Shown here: one piece after another, positions 9,420 to 22,299 of the stretch
Position numbering within the stretch: position 1 is the stretch's first letter
How the letters are laid out: each line of letters begins with the position of its first letter
Virus record (IMG/VR): IMGVR_UViG_3300017989_000473
Coordinates: 1-22,299 of that record
From: a virus
Direction: 5' to 3' (one strand)
DNA: 22,299 bases
The notes under the pieces: generated by a model
What the model saw: only the letters and a program-made list of their open reading frames with translations
Databases searched by the model: none
What the model was told of the DNA's origin: nothing
Program-made: the position numbers and the translations under genes

Positions 9420-12400
9420 GCATCCATCAATGCGCCGATCCTAAGCTTCAAGGGCGGCATTCTCGGCAAGCATCTGTGGGGACGTGTCGACGTTCCGGCC
9501 TATGCCGAATCGGCTGAGATCATGACGAACTGGCGCCCGACGGCGCAAGGCGTCATGACGCGGCGTCCGCCAACGCGCTATGTCGATACAATGCGGGATT
9601 CAACGTCAAAGGCGGTGATCTTCCCGTTCGTGTTCTCGACAACGCAAAGCTACATCGTCACCGCAGACGATAGCTTTTTCCGATTTTATATCAAAGATTC
9701 GCTGCTCACGATCCCGTCGGTGACGACAGAGATTGAAGAGGGCGAGTTCGACACGTTGCATCCCGACCTGGCGGACGGGTCATCGATCACGGCCTCATCT
9801 ACGTCTGCTGGATCGGTTGCGAATCTGGTTGACGAATCCACGTCAAGCTACTGGCAGGCGGGCGGGTCTGCGACGGCAACGCTTGATTTCGACATGACGT
9901 CGGCCGTGACGCTGCGGGATTTGTGGATCTCATCGCCATCCTCGCCGACCAACCGGACGCCAACGGCGTTTACGTTTGCGGGCTCAAGTACAGGCGCATT
10001 CGCGGGCGAAGAGACGACTATTTTGAGCGTGACTGGTGAATCAAACTGGTCCGCGTCTGAGCTGCGCCGGTTCCGTATCACAACGCCTGGATCGTATCGC
10101 TATTATCGGCTCACGATGACGGCGTGCGAAGCCGGCACCGGGTCATATGCGATCTCGGAAATCTCGCTGTACGATAGTCCGTGGTTCGACAATTCGACCG
10201 GCAACGGCGTGATCACGATCACGGCCGGCAAGCTTTACATTGACAGTGATGGCGGCGGGTTCGGGATTGCCGAACAGGTGTTGCCGATCAACGAGGCCAG
10301 CACAGATCACACGCTGGTGTTTGATGTGGTGCACGGCCCGGTCAACTTGCGGATCGGATCAACGTCGGGCGGCGATGACCTGGCGCTGTTTGAAACGCTG
10401 CGCACGGGCCATCATCGGATCAGCTTCAACCCCGGATTGGCGGCCAACGCCTATATCCAGTTTTATCACTCCGCCAATGCGGGTCGCGTGATTGATGGTG
10501 TTCGTATCCTCAAAGCTGGCGCGGTCGGCGAAGCAACGGGCCTGCCATGGCTGACGCGGGCGGTGGCTGATGATGCCGCCCTGCAGGTGCCGCACCCGTA
10601 CAGCGAAACCGAGCTCCCTGAAATCCAATGGCATCAGATTGGTGATGTGCTCTATCTCGCGCACCCGAACCATGAAACGCGGCGGCTCGAGCGCCGCGGT
10701 CACACATCATGGTCATTAACGCGCTCGCGGACCGAAGGCGGTCCGTTCCAGGATGCCAACACCGGGCCGATTTCATTGTCGGGATCGGACACATCTGGCG
10801 AGATCACGCTGACGGCATCGGATGATCTGTTCGTTGATAGCGATGCCGGGCAGCTGATTGCGCTGACGGATGGCGGCCAGTTGAAAACCAAGACCGCAAC
10901 GGCGGTTGCGATCTCAACCGATGGCATCAAGGTCACGGGATCGAGCGGGGCTGCGCGGACGTTCAATATCCAAGTGTCAGGGACGTTTTCGGGCACGGTG
11001 CGTTTGCAGGAAAGCTCGGGCAACGAAAACAACTACGTCGATACCAGCCAGACATATACGGCCGCCACGAATGTCAACTACGACGACAACAAGGACAATC
11101 AGACGTGGTTCTATCGTCTGACCGTGGAGGCGTACACGTCCGGTTCCATCACGATGAAGCTGACCTATTCGGGTGGCTCATCGACGGGAATTGTCCGCAT
11201 CGTCAGCGTGACCAATGCGACGAGCGCCACGGCCGAAGTGATCACGCCGCTGGCGTCGACCGACGCCGTGACGACGTGGAAACGGCAGGAATGGTCGGAT
11301 ACGCTTGGCTGGCCATCGGCCATCACGGGCGGATATGGTCGGTTCTGGTACAGTCGCGGCATTCAGGTCTGGGCGTCGCAATCGGATGACTTCACGAACT
11401 TCGAAGAAGGCGACGAAGACGATGAGGCGTTTTCATGGACGCTGAACCAGGAAAGTTCTGAGGGCATCCGGTTCCTGGATTTCATCGGGCAATTGGTGAT
11501 CGGGACCGCAACGCGCGAGCAGATCGGAACCGGCAACACGCGATCCGAACCTGTTAGCCCGACAAATTTTCAGACGCTGCCAGCGTCAGAGGAGGGATCT
11601 GCGCCGCTCAAGCCGGTTCGTGCGGAAGGCTCGATCATCTATGCGCATCGCTCGCGCAAGAAGCTGATGCAATTCACGCAGACGCCGGGGGCCTTGTCGG
11701 ACAGCTCGTTCACCTCGATTGACCTCTCAGAGCTCGCACCGGAACTTCTGGACGACAAGATTGTCTCGATTGCCATCCAGCGTGAACCGCAACGGCGCAT
11801 TTTTGTGGTGCTCAAATCCGGGCGTATGGGCGAGCTTTTGTTCCGCCGCGAGATCGAGGTGACGGCCTGGAATATCTATGAGACTGACGGCCGCGTTGAG
11901 GATGTGCAAGTCATATCGCAAGAAGACGAGGATCTTGTGTACATGATTGTTCGTCGCAAGATCAACGGACAATGGAAGCGGTTTATCGAGCGCCTGGGGC
12001 GCGAGGATGTCGCGGAAGATTGGGGCCTGTTCCATCTCGACGCGTATCTCAGCCGGGCCATGACGGTGCCTGATACGTTGATTGAGCCGTCTGGTACGAC
12101 TGGCACGATTACGGTTGAGGCCGATGATCCCGTGTTTGTCTCGGGCGATGTCGGATCGATCTTGTGGTTTCCGGTTGGCCGTGGGGAAATCACCGCTGTC
12201 ACGGACGCTTACAACGTGACTGTGCAAGTCAGATCAGATCTTGATGAGGCACGACCCATCCCGTCCGGGCGCTGGGGGTTTGCCACCGAGACGTCGAGTG
12301 TGTCCGGCGCCAATCATCTGGAAGGCGCAACCGTGCGCATCTGTGGCGACATGATGGATCTGGGAACAGCAACGGTCTCGGGCGGCGCTGTGACACTGCC

Positions 12401-12767: not shown

Positions 12768-13236
12768 GCGGTTTGATGATCTGTTTCGGTTCGTCGATAT
12801 CCACTTGTTTCCATCGGCGTTTGATCTGGCGGCGCACACATCCGGCCGCAATATGCCGGAGCTGGATTTGATCGTCGGCAACGCCATGGTTGAAAAGGCG
12901 ACGTACATGCCTGTCGGGTTCTGCGTGGCGTATTTCGAGCCATGCGGCACGACCAGCATTCAGGCATCGTTTGCAAACTACTTTCGGACATGGCCCAAGG
13001 ACATCATGCAGGGTATGGCGCCCGTGATCAAACGCATCTTTGATGCCGGCGTGACGGAATTGCACGCCATTGCAGACGAAGAGATTGAGGGGGCGATTGA
13101 TCTGGTGCGCTGGGCGGGCGGCGAAAAAACCGGCGACCGGAGCGATGCGCCACCCATCGGGGATGTCTACCGTATCGATATGAACGGCAAACCAATGCAG
13201 CGCTGGATGGCGCTGGCAGAAAGGGGCAACGGCTGA
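12661..13236 (+). CDS. Internal virion protein A-like, GNAT-fold-like (up to 191 aa)
   Basis: By order (after tubular protein B, before a gp14-like gene) this is the gp13 counterpart. Residues 84-158 look like an acetyltransferase-fold unit: a central PVGFCVAYFEPCGTTS strand pair, a helix around MAPVIKRIFDAG, then ELHAIADEEIEGAIDLVRW, similar to the C-terminal 'I-x-x-x-N-x-x-A-I-x-L' part of GNAT-like DUF2833 phage proteins. Catalytic competence is not implied. The start is uncertain. TTG 12661 has GAAGGTG seven bases upstream but overlaps tubular protein B by 107 bases, and its first 35 residues look like out-of-frame sequence; TTG 12730 is an alternative without a ribosome binding site. Residues from about 36 (VKRFDDLFRFVDIHLFP) are certainly coding. 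The stop overlaps the next ATG. Confidence 0.72.
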   Translation: MILRCERTLASASRSTIPSLLPSLEPSQPSKPTTVKRFDDLFRFVDIHLFPSAFDLAAHTSGRNMPELDLIVGNAMVEKATYMPVGFCVAYFEPCGTTSIQASFANYFRTWPKDIMQGMAPVIKRIFDAGVTELHAIADEEIEGAIDLVRWAGGEKTGDRSDAPPIGDVYRIDMNGKPMQRWMALAERGNG

Positions 13237-13721
13237 TGGCGATGGCGGCTGCAATCGGCCCGATCATCTCTGGTGTTGCGTCGCTGGCGGGGGCCATGGT
13301 GTCGGCAAGTGCAATGAATGCACAAGCCGATCAGGAAGAAGAGATCTCGCGCTGGAATGCACAGCGCCAGCGTGAAAAAGCGGCACTGGCACAGGCCAAG
13401 GGCGCGCAGGAAAGCCGCGTGAAGCAGGAAGAAGGCGACCGTGCGATGGCGACGGCGCGGGCGGCTGCGGCGCAAGGGGGCGGCGCGACTGACACGGGCA
13501 CGCCATTGCTGTTGCAGCAGGAGTTCGCGAAGAACACGTTCTACAATACGGAAGTTGCGATGTTCAACGCCAAGGTCGAGCAAGGCGATTTGAACAACGA
13601 CGCGAAGATCACCGAGTATGAAGGACAGGTCCGCGCGAACGCAACGCGGACGCAGGCCACCGCTTCGCTGATAAGCGGATTTGCTGGGGCGGCGAAGGGC
13701 ATTGCGGGAGCGTTCGGCTGA
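13236..13721 (+). CDS. Internal virion protein B-like (T7 gp14-like, 161 aa)
   Basis: The N-terminus AAAIGPIISGVASLAGAMVS (residues 4-24) and the C-terminus SLISGFAGAAKGIAGAFG are hydrophobic and Gly/Ala-rich. They flank a charged, helical, Gln/Glu/Arg-rich centre (QADQEEEISRWNAQRQREKA) and a GGGATDTGTPLLLQQEFAKN loop. This layout fits T7 gp14 (196 residues), which is released from the virion and placed in the outer membrane at the start of DNA ejection. Position between gp13-like and gp15-like genes supports the call. ATG 13236 overlaps the previous stop (TGATG), as does its own stop with the next ATG, so these ejection genes look translationally coupled. Confidence 0.82.
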   Translation: MAMAAAIGPIISGVASLAGAMVSASAMNAQADQEEEISRWNAQRQREKAALAQAKGAQESRVKQEEGDRAMATARAAAAQGGGATDTGTPLLLQQEFAKNTFYNTEVAMFNAKVEQGDLNNDAKITEYEGQVRANATRTQATASLISGFAGAAKGIAGAFG

Positions 13722-16700
13722 TGGCGCGGATGCCGAAGCCCGACGATTTGGGCGTCAATGCGCTGCGGCCAAGTTTGTCCGCCTCGCAAATCAACATTGG
13801 CGTTGCGGCTAAGACCGGGCAGGCGGGCCGCGCCATGGGGGCCGCGATTGCGGATCTTGGCGGGGCGTTTGGGCAGATTGCCGGACGCTTGCAAGAAGCC
13901 GGCAACGCACAGAACGATGCGCGGTTTCAGATCGAATGGAACAAGGCGCAGACCGACACGTGGAATGACATCAACCAGACGACGCCCGAGGATGGATCAG
14001 GCTGGCAGCAGTTTACGCCACGACTTGAGGCCAAATACAAAGAACTTGATGAGAAGTATCCGGTTTCAGGTCAGAAGCGACGACTGCGCCGTGAGCTTGG
14101 GGCAACAAACGACATTCTGCGCCGGGGCCAGCGGGCGGCGCTTACCATGCAGGACATGGGCCGCAAGCATGCGCTGGGCGTTGAGCAGAAAGAAGTTGGC
14201 GGCATTGTCCAGCAGCTGAACGATGATCCGTCTGATGAGAACTATGAGCGGCTAAAGACATCGGCATTAGATCTGATCGAAAGCGGCCGCGGCACCTACT
14301 ACACTGAAAGCGATATTCAAAGGCGGCGCCGTGAGGTGCTATCGACGCTGGCGCTGACGCGGGCGAACAAGCTGCTCGAGGACGATCCCGAGACCGCGAA
14401 AAAACTGTTTGATGAGGCGCGCAAGCTGAAGCGTGCGGTGCCGATCGAGGAGGACCAGGGCAGCGGGGCGGATTCGTCCAGTGTTAAAAAGTATCTAAAT
14501 AAAAACGCATTGCGTGGATGGGACAAGGTTAATCCCAAAATGCAGGAACGCATTGCGTCTATGCTATCGGATATGCCGGAGCCATTGCGGCAAGGACTGC
14601 TGATTTCCGACACGGCGCGCTCATGGGATCAGCAGGTTGCGGCCGCGCGTCGCCATGGCGTTGATCCGATCAAAGGCAAGCCCGGAACGTTGGCGCCGTG
14701 GGGACGCGGCAGACATCACGGGGATGATGTGCAGGCTGTTGACTTCTACAAGCCTGCGCCGCGCACGCTGGCTTGGATGCGGGAAAATGCGCCAAAATAC
14801 GGCCTGAAGTTTCCGGAGTGGGGGCGCAAAAGCGATCCATGGCATATGGAAATGGATCGCAATTTCAAGGATCGCGAGGGTGAGGCGCCAAGCACTTCGG
14901 ATGGTGTCAGCCAGATTGTCGCGTTTGAGGCCCGACGCGACAAGCAAGGGCGCATTACTGTTTATGAACCGCCGTCAAACGATGGTGGTGGAAAATTCGA
15001 AGTTGCTGGGATTAACGAGCGCCATCATCCAAAGGCTGCCGCAAAGCTGGCGCGGATGGTCAAAGCCGGGAATCATGACGAAGCGGAGCGTTACGCGGAA
15101 GAGTATATTCGAAAATATACAGATAAATCCGCAGCGCTTGTGCCGGGGGATGCTGCTCAATTTGTCGTGCGCGACATGGCATTCAATCGCGGGCCAGGTG
15201 GTGCCAATGCCGCTTTGCGCATGGCAGTCGGTGCAACGCCAAGGTCCAAGGCCGCAGCACATAAAGCGCTGACAGCGGATGAGCGCGCCCGTGTAGAACG
15301 CGCGGCTCAGGAAGATCCGAGCGGATTTATTCAGGCGTTCACGCAGGCCCGCGCCGATTATGAATCGCAATTCGTGGGCAAGCGCGAGAATTTGGCGGTT
15401 GGGCTCAAAAACCGCTGGGCGAAGGCGGAAAGAATTGCGCTTGAAATGGCCAATGGCGGCCAAGGTGCCAGCAGTGAAACTCTGCCCGGTGGCGCTGGCG
15501 AGGATGAAGATGTCAGCGCCGGCAGGGCGGGTCTGACGGCGTTGTTCGGCGACCAGGCCGAACCGATCTTGCGCGCCGTGGAAGACGAGCCAAACGCGCC
15601 GCTGTCGCAGTATCTGGACAAGTCCGAACTGAAGGAACTTTCAAAGCGTATTGGCGCGGACGCATCACAGATGACGGTCAAGGACGCCATGACGGCGGCC
15701 TATGCGATTTCGAAGGCCGACGGCGGACCTGAAAGCGTGATGACTGAACGCGAGCGTGAGTTGATGGCGCTTGCGAAGCAAAACCCAGAGACCAAACTGA
15801 CCGACGTTTTAAGCGACGAAGAGCGCGCGGAGTATACACAGCGGTTCGGGTCGTTGCGCGGTGTCACCGTCGGACAGGCAGCAGAGCGCATTGGGGCCGC
15901 ATCGGAAGAAATCGAAGGCCGCGCCAACGGTGTCGTGAGCCGTGCGGCAATCGCCGAAGAATTCCCGATGGGACGGGTCAACGAAGGCCAAGCCGTCACA
16001 GTTGAATCGCAGCGGCTCGGGCGTATGACGTGGACTGCGGAAGAACTCAACGCCATCTCGCCAAAGCAGTTGCGGTCGCTTGCCAAGTCGGCCGATCGCC
16101 GGTTCCGATCCTTTCAGCGGCAGCAGAGATCAATTGCAAAAGGCATCATGTCCCGGCAATTGCGCTCCGTCGAAGACACGGGCGCATCGGTCAACGACTA
16201 TGATCCCGATTTGATCGGGCGCGTGATGGCGGGCACGCCGGAAGCCAAGGCGTTTAATTGGAACCTTGAGATTGCAAAGCTGGCATTTCGCACAAAGCGC
16301 GAGATGGCCGACTTTGATCGCGAGGATTTGGAAGAGCGCTACGCGGATCTGCGCGAGGCCGTCGAACGGGATGCCGGATACAACCCGACGGCACGGGCCA
16401 TCCTGGGGCGGACTGAAAGCGCGATCAACAAACTGCTGCGTCAACGCGAGCGTGATCCTGCACAAGCGGTGCAACAATCGCGCGAGGTCCAGGCCGTGCG
16501 CAAGGAGTTCAAGATTGGCCGCGAGGGCGTGAAAGACGCCAAGCAGGCGTTTGCGATGGTGGACGCGCGCATGAAGGCGCAAGAGCGTCTTGGCCTCAAG
16601 GTCGTGCCGCTCACAAAGGACGAAGCCGATAGCATCCTTGGCCGTATCAATCAGGTGCCGGCGAACAAACGACGCGAAGCCACCAAACAAGTCTGGGCGA

Positions 16701-16954
16701 AGGTGCAACAGATTTATGGGCGTCACGCGGAGATGGTCATGCGTGCGGCGGTGGATTTGTCCAGGATCGACAAGGAAGACGACCGAACACGCCTGGACCG
16801 TGAAATGCGCCGGTCTCAACGCCGCGCAACTCCGACCATCACGGATGAGAGTGTGATCAATCGCGCAATCAAGGGCGGTCGCGAAGACGTTGAGGAAGAA
16901 GACGTCAAGCCGAACATACCGTTTCTGATGAATCCGCTCGGGCTTCTCAACTGA
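13721..16954 (+). CDS. Internal virion protein C-like with M15 peptidase-like and GH108-like domains (1077 aa)
   Basis: By place it is the T7 gp15 counterpart (747 residues), a helical ejection protein; residues 1-245 and 600-1077 are charged, helical and fit that role. Two extra modules lie between. Residues 285-380 resemble M15 (VanY-type) peptidases: RHHGDDVQAVDFY (331-343) and DPWHMEMD (372-379) supply the His/Asp and His zinc ligands, although His-to-Asp spacing is one longer than the usual H-x-x-G-x-A-x-D. Residues 395-575 resemble GH108-type muramidase plus its peptidoglycan-binding part: VAFEARRD (Glu 403 as likely acid), DGGGKFEVAGIN, then RDMAFNRGPGGANAALRMAVG. Together they would cut peptide and glycan bonds in the wall. 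DNA around 14480-14560 and 14930-15140 looks more AT-rich than its surroundings, hinting at module insertion. T7 places its lytic domain in gp16 instead. Confidence 0.85.
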   Translation: MARMPKPDDLGVNALRPSLSASQINIGVAAKTGQAGRAMGAAIADLGGAFGQIAGRLQEAGNAQNDARFQIEWNKAQTDTWNDINQTTPEDGSGWQQFTPRLEAKYKELDEKYPVSGQKRRLRRELGATNDILRRGQRAALTMQDMGRKHALGVEQKEVGGIVQQLNDDPSDENYERLKTSALDLIESGRGTYYTESDIQRRRREVLSTLALTRANKLLEDDPETAKKLFDEARKLKRAVPIEEDQGSGADSSSVKKYLNKNALRGWDKVNPKMQERIASMLSDMPEPLRQGLLISDTARSWDQQVAAARRHGVDPIKGKPGTLAPWGRGRHHGDDVQAVDFYKPAPRTLAWMRENAPKYGLKFPEWGRKSDPWHMEMDRNFKDREGEAPSTSDGVSQIVAFEARRDKQGRITVYEPPSNDGGGKFEVAGINERHHPKAAAKLARMVKAGNHDEAERYAEEYIRKYTDKSAALVPGDAAQFVVRDMAFNRGPGGANAALRMAVGATPRSKAAAHKALTADERARVERAAQEDPSGFIQAFTQARADYESQFVGKRENLAVGLKNRWAKAERIALEMANGGQGASSETLPGGAGEDEDVSAGRAGLTALFGDQAEPILRAVEDEPNAPLSQYLDKSELKELSKRIGADASQMTVKDAMTAAYAISKADGGPESVMTERERELMALAKQNPETKLTDVLSDEERAEYTQRFGSLRGVTVGQAAERIGAASEEIEGRANGVVSRAAIAEEFPMGRVNEGQAVTVESQRLGRMTWTAEELNAISPKQLRSLAKSADRRFRSFQRQQRSIAKGIMSRQLRSVEDTGASVNDYDPDLIGRVMAGTPEAKAFNWNLEIAKLAFRTKREMADFDREDLEERYADLREAVERDAGYNPTARAILGRTESAINKLLRQRERDPAQAVQQSREVQAVRKEFKIGREGVKDAKQAFAMVDARMKAQERLGLKVVPLTKDEADSILGRINQVPANKRREATKQVWAKVQQIYGRHAEMVMRAAVDLSRIDKEDDRTRLDREMRRSQRRATPTITDESVINRAIKGGREDVEEEDVKPNIPFLMNPLGLLN
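14505..14558. repeat. Twin 11-nt hyphenated palindromes at a module border
   Basis: ACGCATTGCGT occurs at 14505-14515 and 14548-14558, 43 bases apart. The encoded residues are in different frames (N-A-L-R versus R-I-A), so protein constraint does not explain the match. Each copy is a palindrome with five-base arms. They lie just before the M15-like domain in an AT-rich patch. Confidence 0.5.
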
Positions 16955-19900
16955 TGGATGATTTCAAACCAATCGGCCAAAATGTGTACGATGACGACGA
17001 GCGCCCGTCGGGTCTGATTGGTCAGTCCGGGTCCATGGCCTCGTTCCTGCGGGATTACGAGGTCGAGGAAACGCCGACGACAACTGTCATCGAAAAGAAC
17101 TCGTTTGCGGCGCCGCGGGCCGATCAGGTTGAATACCTCAAAGCCTATCCCGATACCGCATCGGACTTTGATGGCCGGTTCGGGCCGGGTGCGGCGGCCA
17201 AGGCATTGGGCACGCCGAAGGTTGTCGAAGATGCCGACAAGATGCAGGTGGTGCAATCCCCGATCACCGGGCTGGATGTGCTTGCCCGTGTTGGCGCCGA
17301 TGATGGTGTGCCGGCGATCCTCGATGGCTATCTGACCAGCCAGCGCCTTGCCGAAGAGACCACGGAAGATGTGGCCCGCACCAACAGCCTCAAGGCGGTC
17401 TGGGATCAGGGCGCGAGTGACAAGGCCGCGTCGTGGATCGACGGGGAGGTTGAGAGCGCGGCGAAGTCGGTTGCAGCGCTCGAAGCGGACGCCAAGCGTG
17501 GCCCGATTACTTTGGATGCTCAAAACCGGTTGGATACGGCGCGGGCGCGGCTCAAGGCGGCGCAAGATGTGAAGGCTGATGCGGCGGCCGGCGAACGTCA
17601 AATGACGCCCAAAGAGCGCGTGATGATGGCGATGTTGATTGAAGCGCAGTCGGGCGTGATCGACAAGGCGGTCCGTGAGCTCCAGCAGTTTGATTCAGAT
17701 CCTGAATACCGAAAAGACCTGATGGCGCGGAGCGCGTCTGCGGGCCTTGATGAGGCGCGCTGGAACAAGGATGTTCGCGAGATCCTTGCCAAGCGTGTCA
17801 ACGAGGCGGTGCGGCGCCGGGATCTGTTGCGCCAGGCTCTGAGCCAGGGCCGCATGCGCGGCGCCATGACGGACGCCACCGCAATCGGTGAGTTTGTGCG
17901 GTCGTATGCGCGCGGCATTGCGCAAGCCACCGGCATCATGGGTGGGGCGCTGAACCAGTGGGCGGAAAGTCTTGAAGGTGAAGCGGGTCTAGGCGATGCG
18001 CTCAAGAGCTGGTCGAACAAAATCATTGAGGATATCCCGGCTGAGGCTGCGCCAGAACTCTTGAAAATCCAGTCGGCGCGCGATGTGTCGCTGTGGTTTT
18101 CCTCAAAGCTTGGCCAGGCTTTCGGCACGACGTTGCCGATCGTTGCAAGTGCGATAGCGGCTGGTCCGACTGCTGGTGTGACGGCGGGCCTTGCCATGGG
18201 CCAGGGCGAAATGCGCAACACGCTGGAAGATGCGCTGTTGGCGGAAGGTGTCGAGATCTCCAAATCGGAGATGCAGCGGATCGTGATGACATATGGCACG
18301 ATCATTGGCGGTCTGGATGCCATTGTGCCGGTTCTGATCTCGCGCTCTGGCCTTCGCATGATCTTGACGACCAGCGCCAAGCGGGCGGCGCAAGTCGGGA
18401 TTGCACGTCAGTTGGCCGTGGCTGTGGCGCGGGACAGCACGATCGAAGGCGCAACGGAAGCTGCGCAAGAGTTCCTGCTGGAATGGGGCACGGCTGATGC
18501 CCTGGACCGCGGCATTGATTTTGAGGCGTTCGCGCCCAAGGCGATCGAAGCCTTCGCAGCAGGCTTTGCAGGTGGTGTTGGGTTTACGACCGTTGGCATT
18601 CCGGGTGAATACTCTCAGATCATGCGGCGGCGCCGTGACGAAGCGCTGGAAGCGGCTGAGAAAATCCGCACTGAGATCGAAGCACAGACGCCGGCCAAGC
18701 CAGATGCGGGTGATGCGGGTGGCGGCATGGCTGTGCCAACCGAGGCCCCAGGCACGAATGAGGTCGTGACATCACGGCCGCCAAGCGATCCAACCGCAGA
18801 AGCGCCGAAGATCCCCGATCGGCCAAAGATCATTGCCAAGCCGCGGACGCCAATTCCTGAATCAAAGCCGGTTGAGCGTCCAAAGGCGCCAGACCGGCCG
18901 CAGACGGCCATTGAATACATTCGCGAGCGTGGCGGGATTATCGACGAAGGCGGCGATCTTGCCGCCATGGACGCACCGCGCGGCGTGATTGCCGACAATG
19001 GGCAAGGGTTGAGCCCGGACGCTATGCGCGAAAGTCTGGTGCAGGCGGGCTATCTGCCAACGCCCGCGGAAGGCGAGCAGGAGTTTACAACCGCTGATGA
19101 TGTCTATGACATCGTGCAGCGCTCGCTCGCGGGCGAACGTGTTGTTGCGATTGGCCGCGAGGCCGATGAAGCCACGTATCAGGATTATCGAAAGAGCGGC
19201 AATCTGGATGAGCAATCCAATGAGATCCTGAACGATCTGCGCGACAGTCTGGGCGAGTACGGTATTGCGTATGATCTGACTGAGATCGAAGAGCAGCGCG
19301 TTGTCGATCTGGTCCGTAACGAGGGCCTGACCCCGGATGATGCGTTCGAGCGCAATGCCATCATGCGCGGGTCTGGCGCGGCTGAAGTTCGCGCGAACGA
19401 GCCGGGTCAAGCGGATGTGCCGTTTCCGCCAATGTCGGGTGGGCGCGGTGTGAGCCAGCCGGGCGCGGTTGATATTGCATCGCGCCTGCCGCAGCTTCGC
19501 GCTTATCTCAAGGGGGGCGGCTCACTGTCGCGCAAGGCGTATCGCCAGATTGCGCAATCGACGGGCGTTCCGCAGAGCCAGGTTCGCGAGTTCCTTGAGG
19601 CGGCGGAAGATGCGGGCATTGTGAAGCGGGATCGCCGCGGTGCGTTCCGTCGAGACCAGGTTGATGATCCGAACGTGGTCGAGATTGACGTCTTCGACGA
19701 TCTGCCATCCGAGGACAAAGAACAACCGAAGTCCGTTTCAATTGACGATTTTATTTCTGATGTTGAGCGGCTGAAAGAAAAGTTCGGAGCGCCCGAGAAA
19801 GAGACGATTGAGGCTCAAGATATTGAGCCGATCAACGTTGATGTGAAGTTCGCAATTGGCGGCGGACTGACTGTCAAGGTGACAGACGCGGGGCCGCTGT

Positions 19901-21015
19901 TGGAGCGCATTGCGGATGACCTGCGCTCCTTCCAATCGGAATCAAATGAAACACTTGCTGTGCTCGAGCGCATGCAGGACGTCGAGATTGAAGGCTCTAG
20001 TGCGGAAGACTTAGCACGCCTTCGAACGGCTCTTGTCGATCTCCAGAAGATTGTTCAGGACAGATTGCAGGCATCTTACGCGCTCTCAGATCAAATTTAT
20101 ACGTTTGAAAATGATCTGCAAACGCGCTTCCAAGATGCTGTCAATCGAATTGAGTCTGTCGAGGACAGGGCGGACACCTTAACGTCGGAGATAGTTGATC
20201 TATTTGATAGGATTGAGGGTGAGCTGGAATCGCGTGGCGTTGATCTCAACGACGAGTCACGAGAAAAGTATGACGGATCCGGGCAGCAGCTTATTGCGCC
20301 GTATGTTGACGAGGACGTTGATCAGAGCAAGACGCTTATTGAGCTATTCGAAGAAAAAGCGAAATCTCTAGAAAAGAGCGGAGCGAGTTTCGATAAGATT
20401 GAAAGGCTGTTGTCGTCTGAGCCTGACCTTGAGGCAATGAGCATTGATGAATTGGAATCAATGCTTGATACGTTGAATGAGGCGCAGGGTGCGCTTCTGA
20501 CACGACTTGATGTCTCAAGGTTCTATCTCAAGTATTACAATGAAGAGGGCTTTGATAAAATTGGAGAGCGGTTTGATGAAATCCGAAAGGATATCATTGA
20601 GCCAGCCACTGAGCGTCTGGAGGACGGCGCAGACGAGATCGAAAGCTTTATAGCGGATGTTGACGAGCTTGCGTCTGGATCACCGCAACTCGCCTCGGCC
20701 GCCCAAACCCAGAACACCATGACGCGCATGGTGCAAAGCCAATTGCGCTCGGGCAAGACGGTTCGGATATCGGATCGCACGATCGACAGGGTGCGCAACG
20801 CTCTGGCGCCGATGTTGCATCACATTCCGTCGGATGCGCAGGTGGCGGTCATCCAGACAATCAAGCCGAGCCCTCTGGTCAAGAAGACGGACCGCGTTGA
20901 TCTTGAGATGCTGGACCTTCGGACGGGGGAGTCATTCTCCCTTGTCGACGTCCCCTTCACCGTCCGCGAGATCGCGAACGTCCGCGCGGTCCACGTCCCA
21001 TCCGGGTCGGCATAG
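16954..21015 (+). CDS. Internal virion protein D-like / giant ejection protein, first part (1353 aa, ends at amber)
   Basis: Position and size match T7 gp16 (1318 residues), which spans the envelope during DNA ejection. Segments: 1-300, charged helical; 384-418, 442-463 and 525-550, hydrophobic Gly/Ala-rich stretches (e.g. GTTLPIVASAIAAGPTAGVT), with the gp16-like STIEGATEAAQEFLLEW at 495-511; 575-650, Pro-rich linker; 652-735, a unit reading IEYIRERGGIIDEGGDLAA that recurs in large phage and prophage proteins; 839-895, winged-helix-like (SLSRKAYRQIAQSTGVPQSQ); 929-1246, acidic coiled coil in visibly less GC-rich DNA; 1247-1353, return to GC-rich sequence. It starts at ATG 16954 in a TGATG overlap. 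The frame continues past TAG 21013-21015 with no further stop for over 900 bases, so this may be only the front part of a longer protein. Confidence 0.85.
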   Translation: MDDFKPIGQNVYDDDERPSGLIGQSGSMASFLRDYEVEETPTTTVIEKNSFAAPRADQVEYLKAYPDTASDFDGRFGPGAAAKALGTPKVVEDADKMQVVQSPITGLDVLARVGADDGVPAILDGYLTSQRLAEETTEDVARTNSLKAVWDQGASDKAASWIDGEVESAAKSVAALEADAKRGPITLDAQNRLDTARARLKAAQDVKADAAAGERQMTPKERVMMAMLIEAQSGVIDKAVRELQQFDSDPEYRKDLMARSASAGLDEARWNKDVREILAKRVNEAVRRRDLLRQALSQGRMRGAMTDATAIGEFVRSYARGIAQATGIMGGALNQWAESLEGEAGLGDALKSWSNKIIEDIPAEAAPELLKIQSARDVSLWFSSKLGQAFGTTLPIVASAIAAGPTAGVTAGLAMGQGEMRNTLEDALLAEGVEISKSEMQRIVMTYGTIIGGLDAIVPVLISRSGLRMILTTSAKRAAQVGIARQLAVAVARDSTIEGATEAAQEFLLEWGTADALDRGIDFEAFAPKAIEAFAAGFAGGVGFTTVGIPGEYSQIMRRRRDEALEAAEKIRTEIEAQTPAKPDAGDAGGGMAVPTEAPGTNEVVTSRPPSDPTAEAPKIPDRPKIIAKPRTPIPESKPVERPKAPDRPQTAIEYIRERGGIIDEGGDLAAMDAPRGVIADNGQGLSPDAMRESLVQAGYLPTPAEGEQEFTTADDVYDIVQRSLAGERVVAIGREADEATYQDYRKSGNLDEQSNEILNDLRDSLGEYGIAYDLTEIEEQRVVDLVRNEGLTPDDAFERNAIMRGSGAAEVRANEPGQADVPFPPMSGGRGVSQPGAVDIASRLPQLRAYLKGGGSLSRKAYRQIAQSTGVPQSQVREFLEAAEDAGIVKRDRRGAFRRDQVDDPNVVEIDVFDDLPSEDKEQPKSVSIDDFISDVERLKEKFGAPEKETIEAQDIEPINVDVKFAIGGGLTVKVTDAGPLLERIADDLRSFQSESNETLAVLERMQDVEIEGSSAEDLARLRTALVDLQKIVQDRLQASYALSDQIYTFENDLQTRFQDAVNRIESVEDRADTLTSEIVDLFDRIEGELESRGVDLNDESREKYDGSGQQLIAPYVDEDVDQSKTLIELFEEKAKSLEKSGASFDKIERLLSSEPDLEAMSIDELESMLDTLNEAQGALLTRLDVSRFYLKYYNEEGFDKIGERFDEIRKDIIEPATERLEDGADEIESFIADVDELASGSPQLASAAQTQNTMTRMVQSQLRSGKTVRISDRTIDRVRNALAPMLHHIPSDAQVAVIQTIKPSPLVKKTDRVDLEMLDLRTGESFSLVDVPFTVREIANVRAVHVPSGSA
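21013..21015 (+). other. In-frame amber codon splitting one long frame
   Basis: The TAG ends the 1353-residue frame, but the same frame continues as SRNGAIVYAPLTLAGVPDHS into the HETVH domain. No convincing start or ribosome binding site lies just after it. TAG also ends five ordinary genes here (4220, 5554, 7531, 8806, 9412), so it is a normal stop in this phage. Confidence 0.8.
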
Positions 21016-21045
21016 AGCAGAAATGGTGCTATAGTCTATGCGCCG

Positions 21046-21963
21046 TTGACCCTGGCGGGCGTGCCTGATCATAGCCTCCGGGGTCAGGCTTACCATGAGA
21101 CCGTCCACTTTCTCCGCGCTCAAGGGCTTCTCGATGGCGTCGTCTGGGATCGGCTTGTCGCTCATGCCTATAATCTCCGTGTCATGGGTATGCAGTTGGG
21201 CACGGTCCTCAAGATCGTCAATGACCCAACGGCGGGCAATGCCGGCGATTCAACGCTGATCGACGCATACACGGATCGCTACGAGCCGCGTTTTGATACG
21301 ATCGAAAAACTCAACGATGCACTTGCCGAAGAGGGTGTCGCACATTTCGTCGAGCTTGCCTACCATGGGCACTGGATCGACGCGGAGATTGCCCCGGTTG
21401 CGGATGAGCTGAACGCGATCCTGTCGGGGGCGTATGGCGATCAGACGACGGTGGCGCCTGATGCGTCGTCCGTCATGGCGGCAATCAACAGCTTCGATCG
21501 CCAGTCAGTGACACCGGGCCTCCCCATGGACAAAGCCTCACGCATGGCGCGGGCGAAAGAGATGGGGTTTGATACGGATGAAATATACTATCATGGAACA
21601 GGGACTAGCCGCCAAATTGATGAGTTCGGCTTAAAGAACCGGCGCGGCGAAATGTTGCCGACGTTCTTTGTTGGAGAAGGCAACAAAAGGTTTGCGAATG
21701 GCTTTTCGACGATTGAAGACGGACGTATTTATCCTGTTCATTTAAATCAAAGCAAGTTTTTGGATACAAAAAAAGCGAGCCATCGCAAGGCATTAGATGA
21801 TTTGATTGCATCAAATGGCCTAATGCCGGAGGAAGTATATAAAAAAATGTGGCGGGTGAGCGTATTCTGCCGGGATGGGGCAATACTCGTGTTTTTGATA
21901 TGGTTCGCGATGCGGGATGGACGGGTATGCGTATACAGGAGCGGCCCGATTTTGAGAGTGTAG
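21046..21963 (+). CDS. Metallopeptidase-like plus ADP-ribosyltransferase-like segment, same frame as the preceding gene
   Basis: Numbered from TTG 21046, which has no ribosome binding site; it is more naturally read as a continuation of the upstream frame from 21016. AYHETVHFLRAQGLLDG (HETVH at residues 17-21, bases 21094-21108) is an HExxH zinc motif. EEGVAHF (about 95-101) could give the third, glutamate ligand of a gluzincin, as in the 'HEaxHAL...GLF' domain of large phage polyvalent proteins. From about residue 180 the sequence changes to a second module in more AT-rich DNA: IYYHGTGTSRQIDEFGLK, then PTFFVGEGNKRFANGF and IYPVHLNQSKFLD, fitting the ART-PolyVal type of ADP-ribosyltransferase (His of YHGT, aromatic residue in the second motif). 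After residue 268 (KKM) this frame becomes implausible (Cys, Trp and Val-rich) and stops at 21963. The end of the domain lies in the -1 frame. Confidence 0.7.
   Translation: MTLAGVPDHSLRGQAYHETVHFLRAQGLLDGVVWDRLVAHAYNLRVMGMQLGTVLKIVNDPTAGNAGDSTLIDAYTDRYEPRFDTIEKLNDALAEEGVAHFVELAYHGHWIDAEIAPVADELNAILSGAYGDQTTVAPDASSVMAAINSFDRQSVTPGLPMDKASRMARAKEMGFDTDEIYYHGTGTSRQIDEFGLKNRRGEMLPTFFVGEGNKRFANGFSTIEDGRIYPVHLNQSKFLDTKKASHRKALDDLIASNGLMPEEVYKKMWRVSVFCRDGAILVFLIWFAMRDGRVCVYRSGPILRV
21828..21849 (+). other. Candidate -1 frameshift site: GGAGG followed by A7
   Basis: GGAGG (21828-21832) precedes the run A7 (21841-21847) by eight bases. The upstream frame reads TAT AAA AAA ATG; the -1 frame opens immediately after a TAA at 21840-21842 and carries the rest of the ADP-ribosyltransferase-like domain. 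One extra A, or a -1 slip, joins the two exactly. The heptamer here is T-AAA-AAA rather than the ideal A-AAA-AAG, so slippage would be imperfect on the P-site codon. Confidence 0.6.
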
Positions 21964-22299
21964 CCGTCTTTGACCCCCGCAACATCCGCTCTGTCAACGC
22001 CGCGTTTGACCCTGCAAAGGCTGATAGCGCGGACCTTCTGGCTCGCAATTCAACGGGGGACATGCTAAAATTAAGGGCGGGATATCGCCCGCCAAGCAAG
22101 CCCCAGAGGCCCTTCGATGATGACTATGCAGCACCTCCTGGCGATCCAGGCAGCCGGCTTGAAACGACAATCGACGGCGACCCTCTCACTGCCCGGTATG
22201 TCGCAGGACGGCGCACAGTCGGCGGAGACGACGTCGGATTGTCCCCGGAAGACACGGAGTCGGCAGCGCGCGCGCTCTTTACGGTCAACAGCGTTGATC
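21843..22299 (+). CDS. Continuation in the -1 frame: end of ADP-ribosyltransferase-like domain (runs off window)
   Basis: This frame is open from 21843 to the window end, without an upstream ATG; GTG 21849 is the only early start, at a possible distance from GGAGG 21828-21832. It reads VAGERILPGWGNTRVFDMV, RDAGWTGMRIQERPDF, then VAVFDPRNIRSVNAAFDP and ADSADLLARNS. The motif 'A-G-x-x-G-M-x-I-x-E' followed by 'V-F-D-P-x-x-I-R-S-V-N-A-x-F-D-P' is the well-known end of phage ART-PolyVal domains, and its start lies in the other frame just upstream. The likely third catalytic residue (Glu in RIQE) is therefore here. Beyond it, DGDPLTARYVAGRRTVGGDD is another segment recurring in alphaproteobacterial polyvalent proteins. 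It is almost certainly part of the same gene as the preceding frame, separated by a real, programmed or artefactual frameshift. Confidence 0.72.

What the first reader, a model, noticed from the sequence alone, without database searches (positions are those of the whole stretch)
16954..22299. Giant ejected polyvalent protein combining gp16-like, winged-helix-like, metallopeptidase and ADP-ribosyltransferase modules
Read across the amber codon and the -1 shift, one gene would encode a T7 gp16-type ejection protein followed by a winged-helix-like unit, a coiled coil, a HETVH protease-like domain, an ADP-ribosyltransferase-like domain and further sequence, over 1750 residues and still open at the window end. 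Effector domains joined to an ejection protein would be delivered with the first DNA, before any phage gene is expressed, much as T4 delivers its ADP-ribosyltransferase Alt. That would be a built-in host-takeover or counter-defence package.
Basis: partly seen in the sequence, partly recalled or inferred. Interest (0 to 1): 0.72.

Follow-up and report, generated by a model that had tools for sequence, protein, structure and literature searches.

The report
Ejected multi-enzyme phage protein, gene interrupted
This is one broken copy of a known kind of giant phage protein, predicted to be packed in the virus head with the DNA-injection proteins and carrying a protease-like and an ADP-ribosyltransferase-like part; intact relatives exist, so the stop codon and frame slip look like a mutation or sequence error rather than a new mechanism.

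Summary
The features are real. ORF 16954-21015 (1353 aa) ends in an in-frame amber. The same frame stays open past it (HETVH, then MARAKEMGFDTD...YHGT), and the rest lies one frame back, from the A7 run at 21841-21847 to the contig end. One ART profile built without the window matches the first frame on model positions 1-96 and the second on 111-164 of 164, so the shift falls inside one ART domain. Uncultivated-phage contigs encode the same order (hydrophobic N part, winged-helix-like unit, HEAVHALR zincin, ART) in one uninterrupted 2378-aa ORF with LPD38 behind, at the same place after tail nozzle, gp14 and gp15 genes. At least 14 loci have a giant ART and/or zincin ORF downstream of a gp12 homologue. 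This is the phage 'polyvalent protein' class (Iyer et al. 2017) in the T7-gp16 position. A solved cyanophage A4 pre-ejectosome chain has an ART-like fold near its C-terminus. The amber and shift occur only in this record, about 1.3 and 0.45 kb from its end: most likely error or decay. The window's ART keeps the catalytic H but has F and T at the usual Y and D, so activity is doubtful. Virion packaging and activity are inferred.

The parts
16954..21015 (+). First part of the giant polyvalent ejection-protein gene, 1353 codons, closed by an in-frame amber at 21013-21015
   Evidence: fourth gene after and including the 191-aa protein behind the gp12-like tail gene, as in relatives
17797..18594 (+). 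N-terminal ejection segment (aa 282-547) with two hydrophobic stretches (aa 396-415, 443-463)
   Evidence: E 2e-16 to the N part of the gp16-position giant of L109; hydropathy; weak PHROG 'virion structural protein' E 0.003, and 5 of 10 family members hit PHROG 'virion RNA polymerase'
18862..19446 (+). Middle domain (about aa 637-831) shared with other giants
   Evidence: blastp E 8e-15 (L106), 1e-11 (L109), 1e-7 (L104)
19495..19650 (+). Winged-helix-like unit (aa 848-899)
   Evidence: 46% identity to L049, E 8e-9; weak TrmB/IclR HTH hits, E 0.014-0.05
19731..20680 (+). Presumed coiled-coil/helical spacer with lower GC (0.46-0.54)
   Evidence: composition; only weak coiled-coil-type profile hits
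21013..21015 (+). In-frame amber codon, 27 residues before HETVH; private to this record
   Evidence: relatives are open here
21016..21510 (+). Zincin-type metallopeptidase (MPTase) segment: HETVHFLR at 21094-21117 and the downstream EE (third-ligand candidate)
   Evidence: profile E 1e-9; H, E, H, L, R and E invariant in 18 sequences
21517..21843 (+). ART domain, first two thirds (LPMDKASRMARAKEMGFDTDEIYYHGT...), frame 0
   Evidence: Pfam ART-PolyVal E 8.5e-5, below cut-off; family profile E 1e-17, model 1-96
21841..21847 (+). Run of seven A at or near which the reading frame changes by -1
   Evidence: no stable downstream structure, z 0.39
21846..22298 (+). ART domain, last third (AGWTGMRI...VFDPRNIRSVNAAFDPAKADSADLLA) and following sequence, frame -1, open at contig end
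   Evidence: family profile E 2e-13, model 111-164
13236..13721 (+). gp14-like internal virion protein (context)
   Evidence: phrog_418 E 2e-14
13721..16954 (+). gp15-position ejection protein, 1077 aa (context)
   Evidence: position; E 1e-5 to the gene before the giant in L109
9522..12767 (+). gp12-like tail nozzle protein (context)
   Evidence: phrog_376 E 2e-137

Best explanation
It is the gene for a polyvalent internal virion protein in the T7-gp16 position of a short-tailed phage. The expected protein is 2-3 thousand residues: an N-terminal ejection/membrane segment, a middle domain, a winged-helix-like unit, a coiled coil, a zincin protease, an ART domain and, beyond the contig end, probably LPD38-type sequence. 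Inferred mechanism: it is packed in the head with the gp14- and gp15-like proteins and ejected first; the N part joins the DNA conduit; the protease cuts the chain so that parts are released; the ART domain modifies a host protein before phage genes are read. In this record the gene is interrupted by an amber in front of the protease motif and by a -1 frame change inside the ART domain. Both most likely reflect sequence error near the contig end, or real decay, not programmed recoding.
For: Same module order in one open 2378-aa ORF in L049/L050 (83.6 bits, E 2e-19 over zincin to ART; winged-helix unit E 8e-9), with ART-PolyVal E 1e-8 and LPD38 E 3e-22, both above cut-off. A second lineage (L101-L103) has nearly the same zincin-ART spacing. 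Synteny gp11 - gp12 - small - gp14 (phrog_418) - gp15 position - giant in L049; giant ART/zincin ORF downstream of a gp12 homologue in at least 14 loci. Zincin signature invariant in 18 proteins. ART fold of the intact relative: pLDDT 79, the highest-ranked Foldseek hits are ART-fold proteins, Z 8.3 to ParT. Of 42 ART copies with a recognised end, 41 (all in viral contigs) are in one frame apart from a single broken chromosomal copy. A solved pre-ejectosome chain, 9k3a_B (A-4L gp27), matches the ART model at residues 1418-1600, Z 6.7, and its gene sits in the same cluster.
Against: No peptide or virion data. The zincin model is poor before the HExxH helix and has no Foldseek match. The window's ART has F for Y and T for D, so it may be inactive or bind rather than transfer. 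An N-terminal link to T7 gp16 was not found by sequence. Only one record covers the breaks, so error and real mutation cannot be separated.
Confidence: 0.82

Rival explanations
1. Real decay: the phage or strain carries a genuinely truncated gene and makes only the 1353-aa protein, which still serves as ejection protein; the effector part is a pseudogene.
For: Two breaks within 0.83 kb while the 16.9 kb before them show no other break that I saw; the ART active-site residues also depart from the family majority; 1353 aa is close to T7 gp16 (1318 aa, PMC8954989); L018 matches the upstream part at 100% over 6358 bases, so upstream sequence quality is good.
Against: The frames on both sides are otherwise clean, so any decay would be very recent. 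Both breaks lie close to the contig end, where errors are likelier (inference).
Confidence: 0.3
2. Programmed recoding: amber readthrough and -1 frameshifting yield a minority of full-length, effector-bearing copies among many structural 1353-aa copies.
For: A7 run with a GGAGG 8 nt upstream, reminiscent of dnaX-type signals (own knowledge); frames open on both sides.
Against: Intact relatives need no recoding; the 0-frame codons TAT AAA AAA ATG are not a canonical slippery heptamer; no stable downstream structure (z 0.39); the shift falls inside a domain; two recoding events in series would be needed.
Confidence: 0.05
3. Separate genes: the 1353-aa protein is complete and 21046-21963 is an independent small gene.
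For: The amber is a formal stop, and a TTG start exists at 21046.
Against: That start lies just before the zincin motif and I could see no ribosome-binding site before it; the ORF would end inside the ART domain; relatives have one chain.
Confidence: 0.03

Closest known systems
Phage polyvalent proteins with MPTase and ART-PolyVal domains (Iyer et al. 2017, PMC5512222)
   Same: Giant multi-enzyme chain in the virion gene cluster; HExxH zincin plus ART with N-terminal H; LPD38 in the intact relative; proposed autoprocessing and host modification.
   Different: This copy is interrupted; its ART has F and T at the Y and D sites; the contig ends before any LPD38.
Virion RNA polymerase of N4-like phages with MPTase/ART (e.g. 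Roseovarius Plymouth podovirus 1, as described in PMC5512222)
   Same: Ejected giant protein with zincin and, in some, ART; 5 of 10 N segments of the family, though not the window's own, hit PHROG 'virion RNA polymerase'.
   Different: No RNA polymerase domain found here; the gene sits in a T7-type gp11-gp12-gp14-gp15 order.
Anabaena phage A-4L gp27, PDB 9k3a_B (cyanophage A4 pre-ejectosome)
   Same: Giant gene following the tail tubular and internal-protein genes; ART-like fold near the C-terminus with LYHGT and GTYFS motifs.
   Different: No HExxH found; very weak sequence similarity; no ART-PolyVal hit.
T7 gp16
   Same: Position of the third internal virion protein; hydrophobic segments.
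   Different: No transglycosylase domain detected; extra enzymatic modules.
T4 Alt
   Same: Head-packaged ART as a functional model.
   Different: Different ART clade (R-S-E), separate protein (PMC5512222).

Membership tests
Phage polyvalent proteins (Iyer et al. 2017) | Two or more different enzymatic/effector domains in one polypeptide | tested here: met
   Zincin and ART in one 2378-aa ORF in L049 in the window's order; in the window itself the chain is interrupted by amber and shift
Phage polyvalent proteins (Iyer et al. 2017) | Gene among late virion genes | tested here: met
   gp12 (phrog_376) - 191 aa - gp14 (phrog_418) - 1077 aa - giant; same in relatives
Phage polyvalent proteins (Iyer et al. 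2017) | Delivered into the host with the DNA | not testable with these tools
   needs virion and host-cell proteomics
Zincin-like MPTase of polyvalent proteins | HExxH helix and downstream Glu ligand | tested here: met
   H139 E140 H143 and E218 invariant in 18 sequences; profile E 1e-9
Zincin-like MPTase of polyvalent proteins | Zincin fold | tested here: inconclusive
   helical part pLDDT over 90 but the preceding strand region under 50; no Foldseek match; best VIA Z 4.6, to a lethal-factor-family toxin; IrrE peptidases only at E 0.5-1.6
ART-PolyVal / Tox-ART-HYD2 | ART fold | tested here: met
   for the intact relative L049; the window belongs to the same sequence family
ART-PolyVal / Tox-ART-HYD2 | Curated Pfam score | tested here: inconclusive
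   window pieces 20.8-23.8 bits against cut-off 31.2, with the domain split between frames; L049 36.4 bits passes
ART-PolyVal / Tox-ART-HYD2 | H-Y-D catalytic triad | tested here: not met
   window has H, F, T; in 39 relatives H 37, Y 20/F 10, D 25/T 3. It is placed in the ART sequence family, not claimed as an active HYD enzyme
T7 gp16 | N-terminal lytic transglycosylase | tested here: not met
   no such Pfam hit; this domain is also missing in P22-type homologues (PMC8954989)
T7 gp16 | Position after gp14 and gp15 and hydrophobic membrane segments | tested here: met

The most novel reading that the evidence does not exclude
The amber and the -1 slip at the A7 run are both genuine and used: most copies end at residue 1353 and act as structural ejection protein, and a small recoded fraction carries the protease and ART into the host.
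Probability: 0.04. Interest if true: 0.7.

Novelty: new member of a known kind. Interest (0 to 1): 0.33.

Why it matters
It shows that ejection-position giants with protease and ART modules recur in many uncultivated short-tailed phages, with a conserved gene order. Together with the ART-like fold in the solved cyanophage A4 pre-ejectosome, this makes the proposal that effectors ride in the ejectosome directly testable in a cultivated phage. The window itself adds a damaged copy, not a new principle.

Tried and rejected
Whole-gene DNA and protein searches of 50,697 phage records: no match. Single-sequence scans with the N part and with the zincin alone: nothing; only alignments (A2, A3) worked. 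Genome scan with the zincin-ART segment: nothing. A scan for other contigs around the frame change found none, so the breaks have no second observation. Recoded TAG was rejected: TAG ends several ordinary genes. Programmed shift: no downstream structure, no canonical heptamer, not conserved. Zincin fold search: no useful match; the VIA list has a lethal-factor-family chain at Z 4.6, too weak to use alone. N segment against PDB sequences: nothing. Pfam/NCBIfam for the gp15-position gene: nothing above chance. The paper on cyanophage A4 (PNAS 2025) is not held, so what it says of gp27 was not read.

Full report
WHAT IS THERE. The window is a complete IMG/VR virus record of 22,299 bases, so the gene is cut by the contig end. 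ORF 16954-21015 (1353 aa) overlaps the stop of the preceding gene and ends in TAG. The same frame is open to 21963, and the -1 frame is open from before 21849 to the end. Openness alone is beyond chance: 0 of 2000 shuffles for 21016-21843, and 87 of 20,000 for the -1 stretch. TAG closes several ordinary genes here, so it is not reassigned.

ONE GENE, SHOWN BY HOMOLOGY. I collected ART-bearing phage loci and zincin-bearing loci. Profiles built without the window were run on the separate frames, with no joining of the frames. The ART profile (164 positions) matches the frame-0 piece on 1-96 (E 1e-17) and the -1 piece on 111-164 (E 2e-13). The zincin profile matches the segment after the amber (E 1e-9), not the segment before it and not a reversed control. 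The amber lies 27 residues before HETVH and the shift lies in the middle of the ART domain; the shift at least is not at a domain boundary.

INTACT RELATIVES. L049/L050 (contigs of 50.3 and 46.4 kb) encode one 2378-aa ORF with the window's order: hydrophobic N part, winged-helix-like unit (46% over 52 aa, E 8e-9), HEAVHALR zincin, ART, then about 1450 residues. Pfam gives ART-PolyVal and LPD38 above cut-off. L101-L103 encode a 2678-aa ORF with zincin and ART at nearly the same spacing (144 residues from HExxH to ART signature; L049 146, window 149). Of 48 distinct ART copies, 41 have both ends in one frame; 1 is broken (a bacterial chromosome, L020); for 6 the end was not recognised by my pattern. 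The window's breaks are therefore private to this record as far as the searched collections show.

POSITION. Upstream lie gp12 (phrog_376, E 2e-137), a 191-aa protein, gp14 (phrog_418, E 2e-14) and a 1077-aa gene. L049 repeats this order. In at least 14 distinct loci a giant ORF with ART and/or zincin lies downstream of a gp12 homologue, usually with a 540-1140 aa gene just before it. The window's N part (aa 282-547) is related to the N part of the L109 giant (E 2e-16), and the middle domain recurs in several giants. In T7 the third protein of this cluster, gp16, crosses the inner membrane and reaches the cytoplasm (PMC8954989). Similarity to T7 gp16 itself was not found and no transglycosylase domain was detected, so 'gp16-like' means position and role, not proven descent.

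FOLDS AND ACTIVE SITES. The ART model of the intact relative (pLDDT 79) hits ART-fold proteins: RES toxin and tankyrase by Foldseek (prob 0.9-0.99); ParT Z 8.3, MbcT Z 8.2, PARPs about 7 by VIA. Z values near 8 alone would be modest, but the top of the list is uniformly ART. Among the rows is 9k3a_B residues 1418-1600 (Z 6.7): this is gp27 of Anabaena phage A-4L, 1717 aa, solved in the pre-ejectosome, with LYHGT and GTYFS motifs. Its gene follows the tail tubular and internal-protein genes, so an ART-like domain inside an ejectosome has been seen physically, although sequence relation to this family is barely detectable. The polyvalent ART site is described as H-Y-D (PMC5512222). In 39 relatives: H 37; Y 20, F 10; D 25, T 3. 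The window has H, F and T, so catalysis is uncertain. The zincin keeps all metal-site residues, but its fold test was inconclusive.

MECHANISM. Shown: gene order, module order, family membership of the zincin motif region and ART, interruption of this copy. Inferred: packaging, ejection, autoproteolysis, host modification; these follow the published model for polyvalent proteins (PMC5512222) and for head-packaged ARTs (PMC9503650). The interruption is most simply error near a contig end, or recent decay; the two cannot be separated with one record. Programmed recoding is unlikely: relatives do without it, the codons at the A7 run are not a canonical slippery heptamer, and no downstream structure is present (z 0.39). 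A GGAGG 8 nt upstream of the run is the only feature in its favour.

NOVELTY. The idea of an ejected protein with protease and ART effectors, compared with T4 Alt, is published (2017, PMC5512222). This is a new, damaged member. The recurrence in the gp16 position of many uncultivated phages and the link to 9k3a are the useful additions.

Noticed in passing
L123 (KF356198.1) 20116-25269, minus strand: Anabaena phage A-4L gp27, annotated only 'tail protein' and solved in PDB 9k3a (chain B), has an ART-like fold near its C-terminus (residues 1418-1600) with LYHGT and GTYFS motifs; Pfam does not flag it.
   Followed up: partly
window 14470-15400: The gp15-position protein has RHHGDDVQAVDF...DPWHMEMD (DD-peptidase/VanY-like pattern; Pfam only E 0.26) and, after it, a stretch resembling a peptidoglycan hydrolase by eye; the A-4L counterpart carries Peptidase_M23 (E 1e-21).
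   Followed up: partly
window 9783-10151: The gp12-like tail nozzle protein carries an F5/8 type C (discoidin, sugar-binding type) domain at aa 88-210 (Pfam E 2e-6, at the cut-off).
   Followed up: no
window about 1340-1740: A near-identical contig (L019) differs here by about 40 substitutions and two indels while the rest is almost identical: a local variable patch between terminase and portal genes.
   Followed up: no
window 19600-20700 and 21400-22000: GC falls from about 0.61 to 0.46-0.54 over the coiled coil and the ART domain, as if these modules were later acquisitions.
   Followed up: no
L020 10024-10468: An ART copy in a Mesorhizobium chromosome is interrupted by an in-frame stop, a probable decayed prophage remnant.
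   Followed up: no
L034, L095: Two ART domains in one giant ORF.
   Followed up: no
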